From Streptomyces sp. NBC_01267 (GTDB lineage: Bacteria > Actinomycetota > Actinomycetes > Streptomycetales > Streptomycetaceae): a stretch of 64,000 bases of DNA. Positions within the stretch are counted from its first letter, which is position 1. Every line of letters begins with the position of its first letter. The notes under the pieces are model-generated. The model did no database searches and was not told the DNA's origin. It saw only the letters and a list, made by a program, of their open reading frames with translations. Location: the NCBI RefSeq assembly GCF_036241575.1, contig NZ_CP108455.1, positions 6,121,001 to 6,185,000 of the forward strand, written 5' to 3'. Of this stretch, positions 15,019-25,450 are shown in pieces. The position numbers and the translations under genes were made by a program.

Positions 15019-15276
15019 TCAGGCCGAGGCTGCGGAGGGCGACGCGCAACGCAGCGGGTCACCGGTCGCTTCGTGCAGGGCGCCCTCGATGTGCTCACGC
15101 ATCAGCCGTGCGGCGCGCTCCGCGTCATGGGCCAGGGCGGCCTCGGAGAGCTCGTGGTGCTCCGCCGCCATGCGGGCCACCGTGCCGGAGTAGTACGTGG
15201 CCACCCATCGGTGGTGGATCGTGGTCTCGTCCCGCATCCGCTCCATGATCTCCAGGATGCGTGCGGCCCCGTCACC
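15019..15276 (-). pseudogene. GntR-family (FCD domain) regulator fragment
   Basis: The minus strand reads AARILEIMERMRDETTIHHR, WVATYYSGTVARMAAEHHEL and AERAARLMREHIEGAL, the last helices of the FadR-type (FCD) ligand domain of GntR regulators. The DNA-binding half is missing and the sequence runs straight into a flavin-reductase fragment on the opposite strand. Together with the amidohydrolase remnant it may be debris of one degradation gene cluster. Confidence 0.6.
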
Positions 15277-15678
15277 GTCGTCACCACCGTCGAGCAGGGA
15301 ACCCCCTTCGGCATGACGGTGAGCGCCTTCGCCCGCCGCGACATCGACCGGATCACCGACGCGGCCTGGGAACTCGACCAGGGGCTACCGAGACTCCCTG
15401 CCGCTCCGGGATGGCTGGCCTGCGACCTGGACCGCGCGGTGGAAGGCGGCGACCACCTGCTCCTGATCGGCACCGTCACCTCGGCCGACTCCCGTACGGC
15501 TGCACCGCTGGTCTATGGCTACCGCACCTTCGGCACACACTCGGGCTATGCGAGGGACGGCCTGGGCACGACCGCCTTGACCTCGATCGAGTGGGAGACG
15601 ACCATGAGCGGCGCCGCCGACCGGGCCATCGGGGCCACTGGTCACGGATGCTGTGCGGCAGCAACTGAGGTGAGGTGA
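15262..15678 (+). pseudogene. Flavin reductase-like fragment
   Basis: The plus strand reads VTVVTTVEQGTPFGMTVSAF, which is the conserved FMN-binding start of flavin reductase-like proteins. Later it reads WLACDLDRAVEGGDHLLLIG, then TVTSADSRTAAPLVYGYRTF, which match the H-x(n)-GD-H-x(n)-I-G region. A stretch between them (about 15320-15400) is shortened, so the fold would be incomplete. The original start codon is missing. It ends about 10 bp before the intact methyltransferase gene. Confidence 0.55.
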
Positions 15679-15687
15679 AACGGAACC

Positions 15688-17196
15688 GTGACGCTCGACA
15701 GTTTCAGCGACCGCCACCACGGCCGAGCCGTCTTCGCGACGATGACTTCCGATGACCGGGCGGCGATCGGCACCGTGCGCGATGACCTCCGCGCCGCGGG
15801 CTATGACGAGGCCGGTGTCCGGGCGTTGCTGGGGATGCCGGTGCTCGACCTCCACCCCGCGGCGTTCCACCACCTCGACAAGCATGTCCTCGGGGCGGAC
15901 CCTCTCGCGGCCGCGATCAGGCTCTTCCTGCTCGACAGGGCCGTGGACGAACAGGCCGGCAGGGCCCTCCTGAGCGAACCTTCCCTGGACGTGCTGCTCT
16001 CGCTGGGGGTTCTGGACGAAGCCGACGGCGGCTTCCGTTCCCAGGTCCACATCACGTGCGTGAACGACCTCCTGCTGGCGACCGATACGGGTCGCTACTC
16101 CGACTGGTGGACCGGCGCCGACGATCTCAGTGACCGTGTCATGTACATCGGTTACGACAGTGCAGGGCTGGCCAACGTCGCGCCTCGTAGCAGGGCGAAG
16201 CGGACACTCGACCTCTGCTCGGGAAGTGGAATCCAGTCACTGGTCGCGAGCGGGTACAGCGACGAGGTCGTGGGCGTCGACATCAACCCCCGGGCGATCC
16301 GGTTCGCCCGGTTCAACGCCGCCCTCAACGGCATCGAGAACACGACCTTCGTCCTCGGGGATCTGCACGAACCCGTCTCGGACCGGGAGTTCGACCGAAT
16401 CGTCTCCAACCCCCCGTTCGTGCCGGAGGTTCCCGAGGGCGCTCACCTGCTCTATCGGGACGGTGGACCGGACGGGGAACGGCTTCTCGCGCAGATCGTG
16501 TCCGGGGCCCGCCAGGTCCTGGCCCCCGGCGGGCTGATGTCCATCACGACCGACCTGTTCAACCTCGAAGATCTGCCCCGAAGGATCGGGGAGTGGCTCG
16601 GGGCCAAGGACGGCTTCGACGTCCTGGTTCTCGCCGAGCGTCAGTTCCGGGTCTGGGCCTACGCGGACACCCATGCGTCACACGCCCCGACGACCAGGGA
16701 ACGGACGGAGTACGCCGCGCGCATGGTGGACGCCCTGGGTGACGCCGGGATCAGCACCGTCCACACCGGGTACATCGTCGTTCGCAGGCAGCCCGGCGGC
16801 GGTCCGCGCCCGGGGACTGTCCAGACCGTCAGCATCGCCGGCCCCGTGACGCGGCCGACGGGCTCCCATGTGGTGGACCACTTCCGGTTCCTCGACCGTG
16901 ACCTGGACGGACACACGGATGGCATCCTGCGGCCGAACCCCGCCGTTCACCTCGTGTCCTCGGCGCCGCCCGGCGGTCCCGAGACTCACCAACTCGTCGC
17001 GCCCCAGGACGACTACGTGGCCGACATGGACATCAGCGACCTGACGAGGAAGCTGTGGCAGGCGACAGCCTCCAGCGACGTGCACTGGGGCGTCATCCGG
17101 GGCAGTGCGCTCGAGTCCGTCGCCCGGGAGCTCGTGCGGCAAGGCGCCCTCACTCTGGGCGACCTGCCCCCGGCCGGGGGCTCCCGCGACGACTGA
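15688..17196 (+). CDS. Class I SAM-dependent methyltransferase (HemK/RsmC-type motif)
   Basis: The 502-aa protein starts at GTG 15688 (upstream GAGGTGAGGTG). After a ~180-residue N-terminal region comes a Rossmann methyltransferase: LDLCSGSGIQSLVASG (SAM motif I), VVGVDINPRAIRFARFNAAL and FDRIVSNPPFVPEV. The NPPF tetrad is typical of enzymes methylating amide or exocyclic amino nitrogens (PrmC/HemK, RsmC). A further ~150-residue C-terminal extension ends in a winged-helix-like segment. It is 417 bp upstream of the RiPP precursor, so it may be a separate gene or a tailoring enzyme. The substrate is unknown. Confidence 0.8.
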   Translation: MTLDSFSDRHHGRAVFATMTSDDRAAIGTVRDDLRAAGYDEAGVRALLGMPVLDLHPAAFHHLDKHVLGADPLAAAIRLFLLDRAVDEQAGRALLSEPSLDVLLSLGVLDEADGGFRSQVHITCVNDLLLATDTGRYSDWWTGADDLSDRVMYIGYDSAGLANVAPRSRAKRTLDLCSGSGIQSLVASGYSDEVVGVDINPRAIRFARFNAALNGIENTTFVLGDLHEPVSDREFDRIVSNPPFVPEVPEGAHLLYRDGGPDGERLLAQIVSGARQVLAPGGLMSITTDLFNLEDLPRRIGEWLGAKDGFDVLVLAERQFRVWAYADTHASHAPTTRERTEYAARMVDALGDAGISTVHTGYIVVRRQPGGGPRPGTVQTVSIAGPVTRPTGSHVVDHFRFLDRDLDGHTDGILRPNPAVHLVSSAPPGGPETHQLVAPQDDYVADMDISDLTRKLWQATASSDVHWGVIRGSALESVARELVRQGALTLGDLPPAGGSRDD

Positions 17197-17613
17197 GGCG
17201 GACAATCCCCGAAGCGGCATCACCTACCGGCCGGAGGCCCGATCGTTCCCTTCGGCTCCACCGCTAGGAACGGTGATTGTTTTCGGACGATTGCGGTGGC
17301 GGGAGTACCGGTGGCCGCATCGGTCCGCACGGCTTCGCCGCCGGCTCGGCCGCCGCTCACGCCTTCACGGTCCACTCGTGACGCGGAGACGCGCGACCGG
17401 CGTGACCGGTCCGCCGGTCCGCTTGCCCGACCTTCGCGGAACTCCGCGAAGCCGCCGGAAAACTAGGCTGACGTGCTTCTCGATCAACCCAAGTGGTGCA
17501 GCCAGTAAGCGACTTGACGATCAATCATGCCCTTGTGCGCCTTTTGAGGTGCTGCTATCAAGGTCCCCTGTCGCTCAGCAGAGCGACTCGGAAGGCGACA
17601 GAGAGGAAGCACC
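17197..17613. other. Intergenic region upstream of the precursor peptide
   Basis: No gene is supported in these 417 bp. Its last ~100 bp are relatively AT-rich and hold the likely promoter of the precursor operon. The rest has short GC-rich inverted repeats such as ACCGG/CCGGT clusters around 17395-17430 that could be a terminator for the methyltransferase gene. Confidence 0.5.
17533..17561 (+). promoter_or_regulatory. Possible promoter of the RiPP operon
   Basis: TTGTGC (17533-17538) and TATCAA (17556-17561) are 17 bp apart and resemble vegetative -35 and -10 boxes. They lie 52 bp upstream of the precursor ATG, which has an AGAGGAAG ribosome site. A TTGACG at 17514 is an alternative -35 without a good -10. 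Assignment is by eye. Confidence 0.35.
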
Positions 17614-17901
17614 ATGAGTGACGAACAGAAGCCGTCCAGCGGTGAGAAGGGCAAGAACAAGATCATCCGAACGGCTGCCGCGGCTGCCGCGACCGTCGCT
17701 GTCGCCGCCGCTGTGACGGCGACGGGTGCCACGGCCGCGTCCGCGAGCGCCCCGGCGCAGGACGGCCGGTCCACCTTCACGGTCCAGCAGCTCGACGACA
17801 TGCTGGCGTCCGCGGACCTCGAGAACGCGGACAATGTGCGTGTCGTGAAGGCCCTTGAGATCGCGCCTGGTTCCATCTCCGCAGTGCAGTACGACCGCTG
17901 A
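17614..17901 (+). CDS. Putative RiPP precursor peptide with signal-like leader
   Basis: The product is 95 aa. Residues 12-19 are basic (KGKNKIIR). Residues 20-42 are an Ala/Val/Thr hydrophobic run, followed by ASASA-PAQ, which resembles a signal-peptidase AxA site near residue 46. The remaining ~49 residues are acidic and polar, containing LDDMLASADLENADNVRVV, and end IAPGSISAVQYDR. There is no cysteine anywhere. Arg occurs at 19, 52, 76 and 95. The gene ends 2 bp before a cobalamin-type radical SAM gene and heads an operon of modifying enzymes, which is the basis for calling it a precursor. Which part is core is inferred; the Tyr-Asp-Arg end is the best candidate. Confidence 0.75.
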   Translation: MSDEQKPSSGEKGKNKIIRTAAAAAATVAVAAAVTATGATAASASAPAQDGRSTFTVQQLDDMLASADLENADNVRVVKALEIAPGSISAVQYDR

Positions 17902-17903
17902 GT

Positions 17904-20006
17904 ATGACTGTCCGGATCGAGGACCTCCTGCCTCGCGCCGTCCGGGAAGTCCTCGACCGGCAGGACAAGGACTGGACATCACGTTCGGCGCACGCTTCCG
18001 GCGACGAGTCGGTCATCTACCTCACAAGCTGCGGGACGACCGACATCACTCAGCCCTACCACAGCCTCTCCTATCTCGCCGGTACGCTGGACGACTCGGG
18101 GCATTCCTACGTGGTACGGGATCTCGCCATCGAGTTCTGGCACTACATGATGTCGCCTCCGGTCGTCGAGCAGCTGCGTGCCGTCTGTGTCCGGCGGCTC
18201 GAAGCCGAACCCGAGGAGGATTCGCTCCTGCCGTTCTTCATCGACACACTCGATGACAGTCGGCGTTTCCAGCGGGCGTTCGCGACCCTCCGCGACGAGA
18301 AGGCCTTCTACGAACTCCCGGCATATCTCGATGCCGTGCGCGAACTCAGTCTGCTCCCCAGGCTGATGACCCTGCTGTCCCGTTCCGCGGTCTACCGGAC
18401 GTTCAGCAGCGCCTCGCCTCCGGGCATGGAGCACGATCGCATCAACCTCGTGACCCTGCGCCGCGAGATCGAGGCCGGCTTCGGCATCGATGTCGTGGAC
18501 GCCTTCTACGATCACCACGCCGACCGGATCGCGGCCATGCGCCCCGGCCTGGTGGGTCTGACGATCCCGTTCATCTCCCAGCTCGAACACTCCCTGGCCC
18601 TCGCGGCCCGCCTGAAGCGACGCGGTGTCCCGGTGGTCATCGGCGGACCGATCGCCGCGAAGTTCTACAAGTACATCGACGACGTGACCGAACTGAAGGC
18701 ACTCGACTTCGCCGTCGACTACCTGGTCACCGGCGAGGGCGAGACGCCCATCAAGCGTCTGGCGGACCACTGCCAGCGGGGGGCCGAACTGGGTGACGTC
18801 GACAATCTCGTCGACGTCCGGGACCCCCGCCCGCTGAAAAGGTTCTTCTTCGAGAACGTCAATGCTCTGCCGTCCCCGAACTACGGTGTGTGGGACTACG
18901 ACCTGTACGCCTCGCCGAAGCCCGGTGCGCTCTACTCGCCGACTCGCGGGTGCTACTGGAACAAGTGCTCGTTCTGCGACTACGGGCTTGCGATGAACAC
19001 GCCGACGTCGCCGTGGCGTACCCGTACACCGGAACGCGTCATCGAGGACCTGCAACTCGCGTCCAAGTACTCCGAGCACTTCTTCTTCGCCGTCGACGTG
19101 CTGTCGCCGGCCTACGCCCTGAAGATCTCCGAGGCGCTCATCGCGAGTGATCTGGACATCAAGTGGATGGCCGACTTCAGGCTCGAGAAGAGCTACCGGA
19201 CGGAGAACACCGAGGTGTTCGCCCGTGCCGGGTGCCTCGGCGCGGCGTTCGGGATGGAGAGCACCGACCAGGACGTCCTCGACATCATCAACAAGGGCAC
19301 GGAGGTCCTCCGTCTGGAGTCGCTGGTCGGCTCGTTCGCGGATGCCGGCATCCCCGTGCAGTTGATGGGCTTCACCGGACATCCCGGGGAGACACGCCGC
19401 CAGGCCCAGGTGACACTGGACACCGCGGAGGCGCTGCTCGAATCCGCCGCGACTGTCGCGCTGGGGAAGTTCGGGCTGACCCCGGGGGCGGACATCGCTC
19501 TCAGGCCCGATCATTACGGGATCGATGTCCACTACGACCCCTCCGGCGACCCGGCCATTCCGTGGGAGCTGGACTGGAGCCACCGCGAACCGGTCGACGC
19601 CTACCCCGAGGACGACTTCGAGCACGCGCTTCGCCTGGTCAGAGGATTCCCGTACCCGTTCCTGGGTGCCACCTGCACGTTGCACAGCCTGCTGTACTTC
19701 GAGAAGTGTTCCCGGGCGCCGTTCCCCATACCGCAGTGGGGATATGCGCAGACCTGGGAAGCGTTCGACGTCATCCCCTTCTACCACTCCCACAGTGACC
19801 ACAACGGAACCACGCTCTTGAGCGGACTCACAGGGCGCGCGGTCGTCCTCGAAGGCGAACGGGCGAAGCTCTTCGCGACCCTGTTCGACCGCGGTGGATG
19901 GCTGCGGATCGACGCGCGGGGAGGCCTCTCCCGGCAGGTACAGATCCTGCTCGACTTCCTGATCAAGAACGCGTTGGCGATGTTCCTGCCGGCGGAGACA
20001 ACATGA
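17904..20006 (+). CDS. B12-binding-type radical SAM protein 1
   Basis: The 700-aa protein has an N-terminal region of about 200 residues, a Rossmann-like block resembling a cobalamin-binding domain (LVGLTIPFISQLEHSLALAA, GVPVVIGGPIAAKF, residues ~210-260), and a radical SAM barrel whose cluster motif is Cys350-YWNK-Cys355-SF-Cys358. This CX4CX2C spacing departs from the usual CX3CX2C. GMESTDQDVLDIINKG is the typical later barrel motif. No DxHxxG cobalamin-coordinating motif is seen. It starts 2 bp after the precursor stop and its own stop overlaps the next ATG. It probably installs a radical-based change (methylation, epimerisation or crosslink) on the peptide. Confidence 0.85.
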   Translation: MTVRIEDLLPRAVREVLDRQDKDWTSRSAHASGDESVIYLTSCGTTDITQPYHSLSYLAGTLDDSGHSYVVRDLAIEFWHYMMSPPVVEQLRAVCVRRLEAEPEEDSLLPFFIDTLDDSRRFQRAFATLRDEKAFYELPAYLDAVRELSLLPRLMTLLSRSAVYRTFSSASPPGMEHDRINLVTLRREIEAGFGIDVVDAFYDHHADRIAAMRPGLVGLTIPFISQLEHSLALAARLKRRGVPVVIGGPIAAKFYKYIDDVTELKALDFAVDYLVTGEGETPIKRLADHCQRGAELGDVDNLVDVRDPRPLKRFFFENVNALPSPNYGVWDYDLYASPKPGALYSPTRGCYWNKCSFCDYGLAMNTPTSPWRTRTPERVIEDLQLASKYSEHFFFAVDVLSPAYALKISEALIASDLDIKWMADFRLEKSYRTENTEVFARAGCLGAAFGMESTDQDVLDIINKGTEVLRLESLVGSFADAGIPVQLMGFTGHPGETRRQAQVTLDTAEALLESAATVALGKFGLTPGADIALRPDHYGIDVHYDPSGDPAIPWELDWSHREPVDAYPEDDFEHALRLVRGFPYPFLGATCTLHSLLYFEKCSRAPFPIPQWGYAQTWEAFDVIPFYHSHSDHNGTTLLSGLTGRAVVLEGERAKLFATLFDRGGWLRIDARGGLSRQVQILLDFLIKNALAMFLPAETT

Positions 20007-21769
20007 CACAGCCCAAGCTCCTTGTCGTCGTTCCGCCGCAAGCGGTGAGCATGCTCAACGGTCCGCCGCTGGCTCCCCTGCTGCTCGAGTACGCACTGGC
20101 GCCCCACGGTGTGGACGTCGAATTCTTCGACGCCAACCTGTGTTTCTTCGACTGGCTGCAGAGCGATGTCGTGCGGGCTGCTGTCACATCCCGGCTCAAG
20201 GCACTCACCGCCGAAGAACTCTCGCACGACGCGCTCGAGTCGGGGGACCTCACCCGGATCGGCCGGTACCTGTCCTTCCTGGAGAGCGACTACTGCCGTG
20301 GAGGGAAGATCAGTGGTGCCAGGGCGGGAGTCGACTGGAACGCCGTCCACGAACTCCTCGTCAACCCCAGGTCAGAGGTGCCCGACCCCGAGTTCCGCGA
20401 CCTGTGGCTCAGCAGGGCCATGGACGAGCTCTGCCAGGAGATCCTGCGGCGCGAACCGGACCACATCGCGTTCTCGACCCTGTTCCATACGCAGACCGAG
20501 GCGGCGGCCGAGCTGTGCGGGAGACTTCGCGGCGCCGGATTCGACGGGCGGATCGTGCTCGGGGGAGCGGCGATCAAGCTGACGGACGACTTGGCGCTCG
20601 AACAGCTCATGACCGTCTGTGCCGCCGACCTCGCCTACAAGTACAGCGTCTACGGGGAATTCCCCAGCCTGGCGGCATTCGTGCGCGGAGAGTGCCGCGC
20701 CGACGAAGTGGCGAACGCGACCTACCTCGACGCGGCGGGCGCACTGCGCCATGCGAAGGCGAAGGGCGGCACCTTCCGCACGATGGTCCGTGCCCTCTCG
20801 TACGACCTGGTCGAACGCTCGGAATACCTTGAGGAGCGCATCTATCCGGTCCTGGTCTCGGAGGGCTGCTACTGGGGGAAGTGCGACTTCTGCGACTACC
20901 CGTTCCTCGCCTCCCAGGACCCGTTCAAGGTCAGTGCCTTCTTCCGGCAGGCCACCGACGTGGTGCACGACATCGGTGAACTCGTCGAGAAACGCGGGGT
21001 GTCGCGGATCGACCTGATCTCGGACGCCGTGCCGATGGGATACTTCCGTCTGCTCGCCGACGCCGGCGCGGGTCGTCCGCGTGAGCTCGGTGCACGACTC
21101 GAATGCTCGATCCGTGCGGAACCGAAGGCGAAGGCCCACCACTTCGAGGCCATGGCCGAGTGCGGCGTCGACCTGGTGACGATCGGCGTCGAGTCGCTGG
21201 CGGACGAAGTCCTCGAAGGAATGCAGAAGGGCAACACGTACACCGACATCCTGCGGTCGATGAGGCTGGCCCGTGAGCAGGGCATCAAGGTGAAGGCCAA
21301 TCTCATCTTCGATCACCCGAGGATGCAGCTGCGTCACGTCGAGGAGACCCTCGAGAAGCTCGACGAGATTCTCCAGTACGTCGAATCGCTCGGCATTCAT
21401 TCGTTTGGGCTCACCCCCCACGCCCCGCTCGCGTTCACCCCCGAGAGCGCCAACCTCGTCGTGCTCAACGGCCAGAGGACCACCAACGACCACGGTGAGC
21501 ATCACCTTCGGTTCGTGCGGACCGATATGACGCCCGAGCTGGAGACGCGACTGTCGGATCTGCGGACGGCTGTCGAGACGGCCGCCTATCAGCTGGAGAT
21601 CGCGCGCGCCGGTGGCCGGAAGGCTCCGGATCGGCGGAAGGTCATTCGTCTTCCGTACCGGTGGGACGGCGACCGTGCGGTCAGGGACACCGTCGCGGAC
21701 CTGAGCCTCAGCATCCCGGGCGAGTCCGCTCCCTTCTCGTACTTCGTGAAGGGTGGCGCCGATGGGTGA
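20003..21769 (+). CDS. B12-binding-type radical SAM protein 2
   Basis: The 588-aa protein begins KLLVVVPPQAVSMLNGPPLA, PLLLEYALAPHGVDVEFFDA, like B12-binding radical SAM enzymes. It has a Rossmann segment (HIAFSTLFHTQTEAAAELC, RIVLGGAAIKL), then the cluster motif Cys289-YWGK-Cys294-DF-Cys297, again CX4CX2C as in its neighbour, and VTIGVESLADEVLEGMQKGN later in the barrel. The ATG overlaps the upstream stop (ATGA). Two distinct but related enzymes in tandem suggest successive radical modifications or a heteromeric enzyme. Reaction type cannot be read from sequence. Confidence 0.85.
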   Translation: MTQPKLLVVVPPQAVSMLNGPPLAPLLLEYALAPHGVDVEFFDANLCFFDWLQSDVVRAAVTSRLKALTAEELSHDALESGDLTRIGRYLSFLESDYCRGGKISGARAGVDWNAVHELLVNPRSEVPDPEFRDLWLSRAMDELCQEILRREPDHIAFSTLFHTQTEAAAELCGRLRGAGFDGRIVLGGAAIKLTDDLALEQLMTVCAADLAYKYSVYGEFPSLAAFVRGECRADEVANATYLDAAGALRHAKAKGGTFRTMVRALSYDLVERSEYLEERIYPVLVSEGCYWGKCDFCDYPFLASQDPFKVSAFFRQATDVVHDIGELVEKRGVSRIDLISDAVPMGYFRLLADAGAGRPRELGARLECSIRAEPKAKAHHFEAMAECGVDLVTIGVESLADEVLEGMQKGNTYTDILRSMRLAREQGIKVKANLIFDHPRMQLRHVEETLEKLDEILQYVESLGIHSFGLTPHAPLAFTPESANLVVLNGQRTTNDHGEHHLRFVRTDMTPELETRLSDLRTAVETAAYQLEIARAGGRKAPDRRKVIRLPYRWDGDRAVRDTVADLSLSIPGESAPFSYFVKGGADG

Positions 21770-22631
21770 GGCGTCCGACGATCCGCACGGCACCGGACTG
21801 GTGGGTTTCGGGGGCGCAGCGGTGACTCCCCTCGGTGGGCTCCCGAGCGCCCCGTCCGCGGCGGCCTGCTTCTTCGGGGTCGATCTCGACATCTCGCGGA
21901 GGTTCGGCGACAACTCCGACGGGGCTGCCACCTTCGTCCGGCGCTGGTCCGCCCGGATGCGGCCCTGGGCCCGCCGGTACCGGCCCTCTGCCATCGATGT
22001 GGGCATCCTCTCCGGCGACGCGGGCGACATGGTCCGCGGAATCTCCGAGATCTACTCGACGGTCTTCGCGGCCGGGTATGTCCCCGTCGTCATCGGAGGC
22101 GACCACACGGTCAGTTATCCGGTAGCCGTCACCGCGGCCGCACGGCACCAGGATCTGACCTACGTCTACCTGGACGCCCATCTGGACCTGGGTTTACATC
22201 TCGACGGATCCGGCGAGGTGCACAACGGTAACTTCGTGGCGGCGCTCGCCGCCGGTGGCGCCTTCCGCGAGGTGGTCAATGTGGGCGCGAGGGCCTGGAC
22301 GACCTACGACGATCCCTACGGCCCCGGCGGCCCCGTCACGGTCATCCGCGACGTCGACCCGGGGGCGCTGTCCGCGCTGAGAGGCAGGAAGGTGCACGTC
22401 AGCCTGGATGTCGACGTACTCGATCCGGTGTACGTCCCGAACACGGGGAGCAAGGAGCCTTTCGGAGCCTCCCCGGAGCAGGTCAGACGCGTGATGGCCT
22501 GGATCGCGGACAACTGCACTGTCGTGAGCGCCGACGTGTCGGAGCTCGTGCCCGATCCCGCCCACCGTGAGACTGCCGAGATCGCGATGCGATGTATCCA
22601 TGAACTCGTCAAGGAGCGAAAGACGCGATGA
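21762..22631 (+). CDS. Arginase/ureohydrolase family protein (probable peptide arginase)
   Basis: The 289-aa protein keeps all six Mn ligands of the ureohydrolase fold: His115 in GGDHTVSYP, Asp138, His140 and Asp142 in YLDAHLDLG, and Asp216 and Asp218 in SLDVDVLDPVYVPNTG. Start at 21762 uses a GAAGGG ribosome site and overlaps the radical SAM stop by 8 bp. A TTA codon lies at 22194-22196. Peptide arginases of the OspR type deguanidinate Arg to ornithine in RiPP precursors, and the operon position supports that role here. A free-arginine or agmatine-type ureohydrolase is the alternative. Confidence 0.85.
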   Translation: MGEASDDPHGTGLVGFGGAAVTPLGGLPSAPSAAACFFGVDLDISRRFGDNSDGAATFVRRWSARMRPWARRYRPSAIDVGILSGDAGDMVRGISEIYSTVFAAGYVPVVIGGDHTVSYPVAVTAAARHQDLTYVYLDAHLDLGLHLDGSGEVHNGNFVAALAAGGAFREVVNVGARAWTTYDDPYGPGGPVTVIRDVDPGALSALRGRKVHVSLDVDVLDPVYVPNTGSKEPFGASPEQVRRVMAWIADNCTVVSADVSELVPDPAHRETAEIAMRCIHELVKERKTR

Positions 22632-23188
22632 ACGAGAGGCCAGCGGCCCAGGTGACCGATGCCGCCGTCGAGTTGCGGCCCCACACGTCGGCGAGCCTCG
22701 AACCGCTGCTGCGGTGGAAGAACGACGCCGAGATCCAGCGGCTCAGCGACGACGGGACGCACACGTACACCCGTGAGCAGGTCGTCGCGACGCTGGAGCG
22801 CTGGATGCGTCCCAGCGACGACATCGTCCACCTCGCGATCGGGCTCGCAGGCCGTGCGGAGCCGATCGGCTTCCTCCACCTGGCGCTCATCGAACGGGCT
22901 CACCGGCGGTGCCGGCTGGGCATCGTCATCGGCGAGAAGGACCTGTGGGGGTGCGGCTACGGGCATCTGGCGGTCGTGCAGGGGGTCGACCACGCCTTCG
23001 ACGTGCTCGGTCTCGACCGGATCACGGTGGAGGTCTTCGCCGACAACCCACGTTCCCTGCGGCTGTTCGAGCGTGTGGGCTTCGTACGCGAGGGCGTCAT
23101 GCGGGAGAACATTCTGCGCGACGGACAGCGCGTCGACGAGGTGATCTTCGGACTGCTGCGGCACGAATGGAAGGGCGGGAAGAATTGA
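22628..23188 (+). CDS. GNAT family N-acetyltransferase (RimJ/RimL type)
   Basis: The 186-aa protein has RimJ/RimL-style GNAT features: ELRPHTSASLEPLLRWKND at the N terminus, GIVIGEKDLWGCGYG (acetyl-CoA pyrophosphate loop, here G-CGYG instead of the common Q-GxGxG/A), and VEVFADNPRSLRLFERVGF in motif B. Its ATG overlaps the arginase stop (ATGA). GNAT enzymes are known to acylate ornithine or lysine side chains in selidamide-type RiPPs, so it may acylate an ornithine made by the upstream arginase. Self-resistance acetylation is another option. Confidence 0.83.
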   Translation: MNERPAAQVTDAAVELRPHTSASLEPLLRWKNDAEIQRLSDDGTHTYTREQVVATLERWMRPSDDIVHLAIGLAGRAEPIGFLHLALIERAHRRCRLGIVIGEKDLWGCGYGHLAVVQGVDHAFDVLGLDRITVEVFADNPRSLRLFERVGFVREGVMRENILRDGQRVDEVIFGLLRHEWKGGKN

Positions 23189-23991
23189 CCAGGATCGGGA
23201 TCAGCGTCTCCGACTTCGTGCCCGCTCTGGGACACCTGGACGACACCGTGTACCGGCGGGTCTCCTATGTCGAGTACGGCGGTCACCACCCGCCGGCGAA
23301 CGACCCCGGCATGCGACACCTCTTCGAAGAGGGCATCGTCAGCGACATGACCCGGCACCTCGTGTCGGTCGAATTGCCCGACGTCCTCGACATCGAGGAC
23401 GAGGCCAGGCTGATCGCGGAGAACCACGCGGGAACCGAGCCGCGCTACATGGTGACCGACTTCGGTTTCTGGAGGCTGGGCGGGCGAGGCGAGCGAAACC
23501 TCTGGTTCCGCCCCGCTTTGCTCGACCGCGAGGTCGCCGGACGCATCGCCCGCAACGTCCAGGGGCTGTCGGCGAAGCTGGGTGCCCCGGTCCATGCCGA
23601 GAACCCTTTCAGCCTCACCCACGGCGGCGATCTGAGTCCCCGCGAGTTCATGCAGGAACTGGCCGAGCGCGGAGCGACGCTCTGCTTCGACATCGGGCAC
23701 TTCTACGCCGCGTGCGTCAACGAGGGCCTGGATGTGGAGCGGGAGGTGGACCGGGTGCCGTTCGAGGCGGTCCGGGTGGCGCACATCGCCGGATTGAGCG
23801 AGGTCGGGTACGGCGACCGGCGGCTGCTGCTCGACAACCACAACGTCCCACCGCTGGGGGGTTGTCTTGAGGTGTTACGGATCGTGAAGAAGCGCGCCCC
23901 GAAGCTTGGTTGGGTGACCTACGAGGCCGAACTGGCTCCAGCAGAGGTCCAGCACCGCGGTCTCGACGCGATTGAGAGGGCAATGGCATGA
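23185..23991 (+). CDS. DUF692/MNIO-like multinuclear iron oxidase 1
   Basis: Starting at TTG 23185 (overlapping the GNAT stop, preceded by AAGGGCGGGAAG), the product is 268 aa with a TIM-barrel DUF692 pattern. Candidate metal ligands and neighbours are Glu30 (YVEYGG), His58, Asp92 (VTDFGFW), Glu139 (AENPF), Asp169 and His172 (FDIGHFY), His200 (VAHIAG), Asp217 and His219 (LLDNH), and Glu247/Glu249. This set matches the family (MbnB, TglH, ChrH, ApyH). Because the precursor lacks Cys, a non-cysteine target such as Asp is expected. A TTA codon lies at 23875-23877. Confidence 0.82.
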   Translation: MTRIGISVSDFVPALGHLDDTVYRRVSYVEYGGHHPPANDPGMRHLFEEGIVSDMTRHLVSVELPDVLDIEDEARLIAENHAGTEPRYMVTDFGFWRLGGRGERNLWFRPALLDREVAGRIARNVQGLSAKLGAPVHAENPFSLTHGGDLSPREFMQELAERGATLCFDIGHFYAACVNEGLDVEREVDRVPFEAVRVAHIAGLSEVGYGDRRLLLDNHNVPPLGGCLEVLRIVKKRAPKLGWVTYEAELAPAEVQHRGLDAIERAMA

Positions 23992-24629
23992 CCACGTCGG
24001 AAGAAGTCGGTCGCGACGTGCCGGAGGCCGACTGTTTCCGGAGTCTGGTCCGGCGGCCCCCGCACGACGAGACGACGACGGAGTACCTCGCCTGGGCTCG
24101 CCTCATGGCACAGGTCGTCGACGACCTCTCCCGGTGGGCGCCCAACTTCGCGGTGGCCGTGGCGTCCTCGTACAGATCCCTCGACGGACTGCGGCCCTAC
24201 TGCGAGTCCGGGGAGTACGAGAACGCGTACACCGAGCCCCTCGCCCACGCCGTGAACTTCGTGCGCCACTTCGTCGCACAGGAGCACCCCGCATGGTTGA
24301 AGGACCTCGCCCGCTGCGAGATGTGGTCCAGCCCCATGGCGCAGAATCTGGACGACGCGGAGCGGAAGGCCGTGAAGGAGGCCCTCGGTATCCAGGAACG
24401 AGGGGGCAAGGAGTTCGTGATCGTGGGCCACGATGTCCTGGAGACCCTCCAGCACGTCACTGGTTACCGCGACATGACATTCGTCCGGTCCGCTCCGTTG
24501 ATGTGGCTGCTGCGCGTGCCGCCGCTCGACGTGACGCCCTCGCCGGAGCCGCGTCCGGGCGTCGTCGTCTTCCGTCGGCACGACGACAGCGTCTCCATGT
24601 CCTACGTCCCCGCGGGGGGCGCGCGGTGA
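23988..24629 (+). CDS. Unknown protein between the MNIO pair (candidate partner protein)
   Basis: The 213-aa protein is not recognised. It is largely helical in its first 130 residues (TEYLAWARLMAQVVDDLSRW, LAHAVNFVRHFVAQEHPAWL) and ends with a beta-rich region (RVPPLDVTPSPEPRPGVVVF). It overlaps both neighbours by 4 bp (ATGA and GTGA). Known MNIO enzymes usually work with a small partner protein (MbnC, TglI, ChrI, ApyI) that binds the leader; this gene occupies the same kind of position. No RRE fold can be confirmed by eye. Confidence 0.7.
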   Translation: MTTSEEVGRDVPEADCFRSLVRRPPHDETTTEYLAWARLMAQVVDDLSRWAPNFAVAVASSYRSLDGLRPYCESGEYENAYTEPLAHAVNFVRHFVAQEHPAWLKDLARCEMWSSPMAQNLDDAERKAVKEALGIQERGGKEFVIVGHDVLETLQHVTGYRDMTFVRSAPLMWLLRVPPLDVTPSPEPRPGVVVFRRHDDSVSMSYVPAGGAR

Positions 24630-25450
24630 TCGGCGGCGTCAGCATCGGAGTCGCCGTCGAGGCCGCATGTGATCAGTACGCACGCGGAGAAACCTCGGGA
24701 GGCTGGGTCACCGACTTCGTCGAGTACGGCGTCCACACGGCCGCCGGGGTTCCGGACTGGGTGGTCGAGACCCGGCGGGCGCTGGGCTCCGGGCTGACAC
24801 TTCACCCTCTCGACATGAATATGGCCCAGCCGGAACAGGGTGCCGGACCCTGGGTGGAGTCGCTGGCGTCCCTGGTGCGGGAGCACGAGGTCACGGCACT
24901 CGTCAGCGATGCCGGCTTCTGGTACCTCGACCGGCGCCGAGGCACGTGGTTCCGTCCCCCGGACATGAACCTGGCGGCGTCACGGTGCGGGGAGAGCGCC
25001 GCCGCGATCGCGGCGGCGTGCGGGGTTCCGTTCCGGGTCGAGAACCCGCCACTGGAGTGGCTTCCGAACTCCCCGTGCCTGTGGTCGTTCCTGGACGAGG
25101 CGTCGGACCACGAAGGCGTACAGATCTGCCTCGACCTCTCGCACGTCCTGCAGTTCGAGCGCAATGTGCACGGACGCAGCCCCGTCCTGCCCCGCTCCTT
25201 CCCGTGGGAGCGGGTCGCGGAGATCCATCTCGCCGGATATGTGAGGGCCGAGTACGGGGGCCGGCCCGTGTACCTCGACCAGCATCTCGCCGACATCCCG
25301 GCGGAGGAGTACCGACTCCTGGCCCAGGTCGTCGAACTGCGCGGTACGGAGACCCCCTTGGGTATCTGCCTGGAGATGGAGCCGCGCGAGCCGGGGGCCT
25401 TCGTGGCTGCGGTCGACAACATCCACACGGCGATCGGCGCCGTAGCCTGA
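24626..25450 (+). CDS. DUF692/MNIO-like multinuclear iron oxidase 2
   Basis: The 274-aa product (GTG start overlapping the previous stop) aligns with MNIO1 almost without gaps at key positions: Glu33 (FVEYG), His60 (LHPLDM), Asp95 (VSDAGFW), Glu139 (VENPP), Asp170 and His173 (LDLSH), His201 (EIHLAG), Asp218 and His220 (LDQH), and Glu250/Glu252. It is therefore a diverged paralogue retaining every candidate ligand. It is the last gene of the overlapping operon. Two MNIO enzymes could act in series or on different residues. Confidence 0.82.
   Translation: MIGGVSIGVAVEAACDQYARGETSGGWVTDFVEYGVHTAAGVPDWVVETRRALGSGLTLHPLDMNMAQPEQGAGPWVESLASLVREHEVTALVSDAGFWYLDRRRGTWFRPPDMNLAASRCGESAAAIAAACGVPFRVENPPLEWLPNSPCLWSFLDEASDHEGVQICLDLSHVLQFERNVHGRSPVLPRSFPWERVAEIHLAGYVRAEYGGRPVYLDQHLADIPAEEYRLLAQVVELRGTETPLGICLEMEPREPGAFVAAVDNIHTAIGAVA

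What the first reader, a model, noticed from the sequence alone, without database searches (positions are those of the whole stretch)
17614..25450. Candidate undescribed RiPP system: precursor, two B12-type radical SAMs, arginase, GNAT and two MNIOs
Seen: eight consecutive genes on one strand. The precursor is 2 bp from the first radical SAM gene, and every later junction overlaps by 4-8 bp. The set (two CX4CX2C radical SAMs, ureohydrolase, GNAT, DUF692, unknown, DUF692) is not a combination I recognise from described families such as proteusins with peptide arginase, selidamides, methanobactins, aminopyruvatides or bufferins. Established: each enzyme class is known to modify ribosomal peptides. 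Inference: they act together on the 95-aa peptide. No exporter or dedicated protease is seen in the operon.
Basis: partly seen in the sequence, partly recalled or inferred. Interest (0 to 1): 0.95.

Follow-up and report, generated by a model that had tools for sequence, protein, structure and literature searches.

The report
Undescribed peptide-tailoring gene cluster in Streptomyces
A Streptomyces genome carries an eight-gene cluster, kept in the same order in related strains, that likely makes a small ribosomal peptide whose unchanging last four residues (Gln-Tyr-Asp-Arg) are predicted to be rebuilt by two radical-SAM enzymes, two iron oxygenases, an arginase and an acyltransferase, a set I did not find described in the papers I searched.

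The parts
15688..17196 (+). HemK/PrmC-like SAM methyltransferase (DUF7059 + MTS domains, NPPF motif at residue 241); probable ninth gene
   Evidence: Pfam/NCBIfam; directly upstream of the precursor also in NBC_00154, 90% identical; match at the strict threshold E<=1e-100 in 1 of 295 Streptomyces genomes, the own one; a 32% identical paralog elsewhere in the genome; NPPF
17614..17901 (+). Precursor peptide, 95 aa: Lys-rich N terminus, Ala-rich segment, conserved leader (FTVQQLDDMLASADLENADNVRVVKALEI) and invariant C-terminal QYDR
   Evidence: 16 homologues; alignments
17887..17898 (+). Codons of the proposed core, Gln92-Tyr93-Asp94-Arg95
   Evidence: invariant in 16 of 16 homologues; last coding bases before the stop at 17899-17901
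17904..20006 (+). B12-binding radical SAM enzyme 1 (700 aa), CX4CX2C at Cys350
20003..21769 (+). B12-binding radical SAM enzyme 2 (588 aa), CX4CX2C at Cys289; 26% identical to enzyme 1
21762..22631 (+). Ureohydrolase (arginase/agmatinase fold), proposed peptide arginase; six expected Mn ligands H115, D138, H140, D142, D216, D218 read from the motif positions
22628..23188 (+). GNAT N-acyltransferase
23185..23991 (+). MNIO 1 (DUF692), TTG start; putative iron ligands H58 D92 E139 D169 H172 H200 D217 H219 E247
23988..24629 (+). Probable MNIO partner protein, TglI-like predicted fold
24626..25450 (+). MNIO 2 (DUF692), GTG start; putative iron ligands H60 D95 E139 D170 H173 H201 D218 H220 and E252 (the last ambiguous)

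Best explanation
These eight genes, together with a methyltransferase gene just upstream that probably belongs to them, likely form a RiPP cluster in which the invariant C-terminal QYDR of a 95-residue precursor is predicted to be modified residue by residue and then released by an unidentified protease. Shown: the gene order, the families, the conservation of the leader and of QYDR, the iron-ligand and CX4CX2C motifs. Inferred: the partner protein would bind the leader (probably around NVRVVKALE) and would serve both MNIOs in turn. The two MNIOs are deeply diverged and would hydroxylate different residues, one Tyr93 (as the biphenomycin MNIO does with aromatic residues) and the other Asp94 (as PesH and PflD do). 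The ureohydrolase would turn Arg95 into ornithine, and the adjacent GNAT would acylate its side-chain amine, as in the selidamide phaeornamide. The two B12-radical SAMs would C-methylate or cross-link, the most likely first site being Tyr93 next to Asp, as in aminopyruvatides. The upstream HemK-like methyltransferase could N-methylate Gln92. Release and export would rely on genes elsewhere in the genome.
Confidence: 0.6

Rival explanations
1. It is a divergent branch of the biphenomycin family: MNIO plus partner would make hydroxylated aromatics, the arginase would make ornithine, and a B12-rSAM would cross-link aromatic side chains.
For: Same four enzyme classes; same iron-ligand pattern and same CX4CX2C motif.
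Against: The core has one aromatic residue, so a biaryl cross-link within QYDR is impossible. No FHAFRF motif. The ureohydrolase is PF00491; against the genes of three biphenomycin-type Streptomyces loci its best BLAST E-value is 0.83, and 6 against the TPR-type arginase of L026. Partner profiles do not match. rSAM and MNIO identity 25-31%. MNIO1 and MNIO2 do not group with the biphenomycin MNIOs in a tree of 15 rows, though long branches make that tree weak.
Confidence: 0.1
2. Only part of the set acts on the peptide: the two MNIOs with partner and the rSAMs modify the precursor, while the ureohydrolase, GNAT and methyltransferase work on a released small molecule or give self-protection.
For: The ureohydrolase resembles agmatinases, and GNATs are common self-resistance enzymes (recalled); the C-terminal Arg could be released by a carboxypeptidase (inference).
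Against: Arg95 is invariant in 16 of 16 precursors; arginase followed by GNAT on peptidyl Arg has a precedent; tight overlaps place both genes between the rSAM and MNIO genes here and in NBC_00154.
Confidence: 0.2
3. The small protein is an exported or membrane-anchored protein that the enzymes modify as a finished protein, like the long MNIO substrates, with no leader removal.
For: Lys-rich start and Ala-rich hydrophobic stretch (maximum 19-residue hydropathy 1.74); most MNIO precursors in PMC12452194 carry Sec signals (abstract).
Against: P0028 and P0029 lack that stretch but keep the C-terminal half, though their contigs are only about 1.46 kb and their starts may be wrong; type-2 partners go with signal-less precursors.
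Confidence: 0.1

Closest known systems
Biphenomycin / biphenomycin-like clusters (bip, bpm, pbs; PMC12707348, PMC12257519)
   Same: MNIO with partner, peptide arginase, B12-radical SAM; same predicted iron ligands; same CX4CX2C motif; precursor with C-terminal core
   Different: Core QYDR instead of FHAFRF; two MNIOs and two B12-rSAMs; PF00491 ureohydrolase instead of the TPR-type arginase; GNAT present; no TldD-type protease, JmjC/cupin or HExxH hydroxylase among the nine genes
Aminopyruvatides (apy; PMC11117315)
   Same: Tyr-Asp in the C-terminal region, B12-rSAM, MNIO plus partner, a methyltransferase
   Different: Asp is followed by Arg here; no P450; arginase and GNAT added; no Cys in the precursor; ApyD and ApyH family scores far below cut-off (47 of 750 and 49 of 400 bits)
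Selidamides, e.g. phaeornamide (review PMC9505594)
   Same: Arginase and GNAT acting in turn on the same residue
   Different: No proteusin/nitrile-hydratase-like leader match, no lanthionine synthetase; different oxygenases
Nitrilobacillin (pes; PMC13060819)
   Same: Two MNIO-type proteins and one partner
   Different: PesX lacks the metal ligands and showed no activity, whereas both MNIOs here keep them; no asparagine-synthetase-like enzyme here
pfl cluster of Pseudomonas (PMC12636437)
   Same: GNAT gene beside an MNIO that hydroxylates Asp
   Different: MNIO-nitroreductase fusion, HEXXH enzyme, ARMD motif; no arginase or B12-rSAM in the gene list that I saw
std cluster of Streptomyces thermodiastaticus (PMC13174530)
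   Same: Streptomyces MNIO cluster with partner and a conserved C-terminal core
   Different: SNKEWQE core, YcaO-TfuA and carbamoyltransferase; no rSAM, arginase or GNAT in its gene list

Membership tests
RiPP cluster (general) | Small gene beside the enzymes, conserved with them, with a conserved C-terminal core | tested here: met
RiPP cluster (general) | Modification of the precursor by the encoded enzymes | not testable with these tools
   needs co-expression and mass spectrometry
MNIO-partner pair (TglHI/PbsCD type) | Gene directly after the MNIO with the fold of a known MNIO partner | tested here: met
Biphenomycin family | FHAFRF (or FHTFMF, YHxYxY) motif in the precursor | tested here: not met
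   precursor ends in QYDR
Biphenomycin family | TPR-type peptide arginase | tested here: not met
   PF00491 here; in L026 the corresponding gene has only TPR matches, below cut-off, and no PF00491; best BLAST E 6
Biphenomycin family | MNIO iron-ligand pattern H-D-E / H-D-H / D-H-E | tested here: met
   9 of 9 in MNIO1; 8 or 9 of 9 in MNIO2; not exclusive to this family
Aminopyruvatides | NCBIfam equivalogs ApyD and ApyH above cut-off | tested here: not met
   47.4 of 750 bits and 49 of 400 bits
Aminopyruvatides | C-terminal Asp and central Cys motif in the precursor | tested here: not met
   Asp is penultimate, no Cys in the precursor
Selidamides | GNAT that acylates (hydroxy)ornithine or lysine with a fatty acid | not testable with these tools
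   GNAT and arginase family present, acyl donor and substrate unknown
Bufferins | Cys-containing precursor, DUF2063 partner | tested here: not met
   no Cys in the precursor; gene 7 has no DUF2063 match

The most novel reading that the evidence does not exclude
A new RiPP class with a very small, fully tailored core: a four-residue Gln-Tyr-Asp-Arg tail in which every residue has its own enzyme (N-methyl-Gln by a HemK-like methyltransferase, hydroxylated and beta-methylated Tyr, beta-hydroxy-Asp, N-acyl-ornithine), made by two active, deeply diverged MNIOs that take turns on one partner protein. The catechol-type, beta-hydroxy-Asp and acylated-ornithine groups would make the product a ribosomal metallophore or siderophore-like tetrapeptide.
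Probability: 0.2. Interest if true: 0.88.

Novelty: new variant of a known kind. Interest (0 to 1): 0.7.

Why it matters
If right, it adds a RiPP family in which two MNIOs with intact metal ligands share one partner protein, making it directly testable how one recognition subunit serves two oxygenases with different target residues. It would also bring together, on four residues, chemistries known from different families (biphenomycin, aminopyruvatide, selidamide). The short invariant core means that product structures can be guessed and sought by mass.

Tried and rejected
Plasmid and wide-genome relatives: tblastn of the partner in 72,556 plasmids gave none at E<=1. rSAM1 gave 18 distant records; the best (Sinorhizobium, 33%) lies beside a flavoprotein and a 2OG oxygenase, the next (Rhizobium, 24.5%) beside an S8 peptidase. 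MNIO2 gave 1 plasmid record and MNIO1 43, none covering 80% of the query. The partner was found in 1 of 295 Streptomyces genomes and 1 of 396 Actinomycetota genomes, each time the own one. rSAM1 at E<=1e-40 was in 8 of 392: own, one of the same species, and six distant ones, five of which (L015-L019) belong to another system. MNIO1 at E<=1e-8 hit 9 of 295 genomes, the own one and eight others. I fetched all eight; in L044 and L046 my simple gene caller showed no matching MNIO gene, so they are left out of the tree; around the MNIO of the other six and of plasmid locus L048 no match to the other cluster enzymes was seen.

The Archangium partner homologue (P0024, 50%) would be the best outgroup, but I had no way left to reach its neighbourhood. 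A hairpin before the precursor start codon folds no better than shuffles (z -1.07); no sigma-70-type promoter was found at 17150-17650. The AlphaFold2 model of the precursor (helix 57-66, strands 78-84 and 87-92) has pLDDT 51 and is not used as evidence. Membership in biphenomycins, aminopyruvatides and bufferins was considered and rejected (see tests). Gene starts in fetched loci come from my own simple gene caller.

Full report
Observation. Profiles confirm two radical SAM proteins with B12-binding domains (the second just under the B12 cut-off), an arginase-family protein, a GNAT and two MNIOs; the precursor and gene 7 match nothing above cut-off.

Genome and spread. The window lies in an 8.07-Mb genome. 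A record of Streptomyces sp. A 4/2, whose contig has the same length as that of the same-species genome G358, carries all eight genes at 99-100% identity. NBC_00154 carries them in the same order at 84-92%. In three further Streptomyces genomes (NPDC004327, NPDC058221, NPDC003027) the locus tags of the precursor and of the partner differ by 30. If tags rise by five, as I recall they usually do, that is six gene steps, the same spacing as here. The cluster is rare: the partner was found in 1 of 295 Streptomyces genomes and 1 of 396 genomes across the phylum, both times the own genome. A partner homologue at 50% identity is listed for Archangium lipolyticum, a myxobacterium (recalled).

Limits of the cluster. 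The genes downstream are convergent glycosidases and have no match in the NBC_00154 flank that I hold. Upstream, a 502-residue HemK-like methyltransferase with an NPPF motif is 90% identical in NBC_00154, also directly before the precursor. At E<=1e-100 it occurs in 1 of 295 Streptomyces genomes, the own one, while a 32% identical paralog lies elsewhere in the genome. I take it as a probable ninth gene; the flavin-reductase-like frame before it (15091-15678) has no match in NBC_00154. The 417-bp spacer between methyltransferase and precursor and a terminator-like site in it (one found, 0.4 expected) suggest that the precursor starts its own transcript.

Precursor. Two searches gave 16 homologues (at E<=0.001, at E<=10, where only the 7,982 candidates sharing most words were scored). 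All 16 end in QYDR (13 of the 16 are in each of the two alignments, which together cover all 16). The half before it (FTVQQLDDMLASADLENADNVRVVKALEIAPG) is also well kept. The Ala-rich segment is present in 13 of 16; P0011 is a partial record, and P0028 and P0029 lack it but stand on contigs of about 1.46 kb. The precursor has no Cys, unlike most MNIO substrates described in PMC12452194. Between this genome and NBC_00154 the enzyme genes show dN/dS of 0.17-0.39; the precursor's 0.57 rests on 26 changes.

MNIOs. PbsC, which forms ortho-tyrosine, has nine predicted iron ligands (passages of PMC12257519). PbsC itself was not at hand. I fetched three biphenomycin-type clusters from Streptomyces by their AFHAFRF motif and placed the ligands in their MNIOs; in L027 the numbering is shifted by a constant two. 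MNIO1 matches at 9 of 9 positions; MNIO2 at 9 in one alignment and 8 in the other. Both have Asp and His where six common-type MNIOs (the own genome's third MNIO, L041, L042, L043, L045, L047) have His and Asn. The same Asp/His pattern is also in the MNIOs of L040 and L048, which stand beside YcaO-like genes, so it does not by itself predict aromatic hydroxylation. Both MNIOs are likely active, unlike PesX of nitrilobacillin, which lacks metal ligands. They are 32% identical to each other and form separate, long branches, which argues for different reactions. In that tree they do not fall with the biphenomycin MNIOs, at an open fork.

Other enzymes. Both radical SAMs carry CX4CX2C, as do the BipD-like enzymes, and as do two of the distant rSAM1 relatives; identity to the BipD-like ones is 25-31%. 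The ureohydrolase has all six expected Mn ligands by motif (the roles of these motifs are recalled from arginase structures), resembles agmatinases most, and has no BLAST match better than E 0.83 to any gene of the biphenomycin-type loci. Arginase followed by a GNAT on the same residue has a precedent in phaeornamide (passages of PMC9505594).

Mechanism. QYDR offers a candidate enzyme for each residue: methyltransferase for Gln, MNIO and rSAM for Tyr, MNIO for Asp, arginase then GNAT for Arg. That is an inference from precedents, not a result. With a single aromatic residue in the core, the biaryl bond of biphenomycins cannot form within it, so the B12 enzymes would methylate or make another cross-link.

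Literature. Searches for MNIO with arginase, GNAT and radical SAM in several wordings, for DUF692 with the same, and for QYDR found no description of this set. Only open-licence PMC papers are held, so subscription papers are not excluded. What I saw: PMC12452194, abstract, parts 1 and 2 of the Results and its sections 18 and 19; PMC12707348, abstract and the first of three parts of the Results; PMC12257519, PMC13060819 and PMC13174530, abstract and passages; PMC11117315, PMC12636437 and PMC9505594, passages.

Verdict. A real, conserved, undescribed RiPP-type cluster, a thematic relative of biphenomycins and aminopyruvatides without being a member of either. The class assignment is strong; the product and each reaction are predictions.

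Noticed in passing
L018:8533-14439 (also L015, L016, L017, L019): The nearest distant relatives of rSAM1 (about 33%) sit in another Streptomyces RiPP-like cluster: a 65-68 aa precursor ending NVVC or NVLC, a SPASM-type radical SAM, an MFS transporter, in L017-L019 a flavoprotein, and a kinase/cyclase-like gene next door. Families were scored in L018 only (aroma-sacti domain over cut-off, TOMM kinase/cyclase well under it).
   Followed up: partly
L048:1557-10257 and L040:4401-10166: MNIO genes with the same Asp/His ligand pattern; on the S. europaeiscabiei plasmid (L048) annotated YcaO, MBL-fold, acyl-protein synthase and acyl-CoA reductase genes and a small gene with repeated DFPFR/EFPFR motifs that could be a multi-core precursor. 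L040 looks alike by gene size and N termini only.
   Followed up: partly
L026, L027, L028: Three biphenomycin-type clusters in unnamed Streptomyces genomes, found by motif; in L027 the FHAFRF motif is followed by ten further residues and the gene order differs.
   Followed up: partly
G000:C1:6445175-6445972 (L003): A third MNIO of the same genome, of the common type (258 bits to PF05114), outside the window.
   Followed up: partly
window 17558-17613: The roughly 50 bases before the precursor start differ little in NBC_00154 and hold an inverted repeat (GTCGCTC...GAGCGAC); the folding energy is not unusual.
   Followed up: yes
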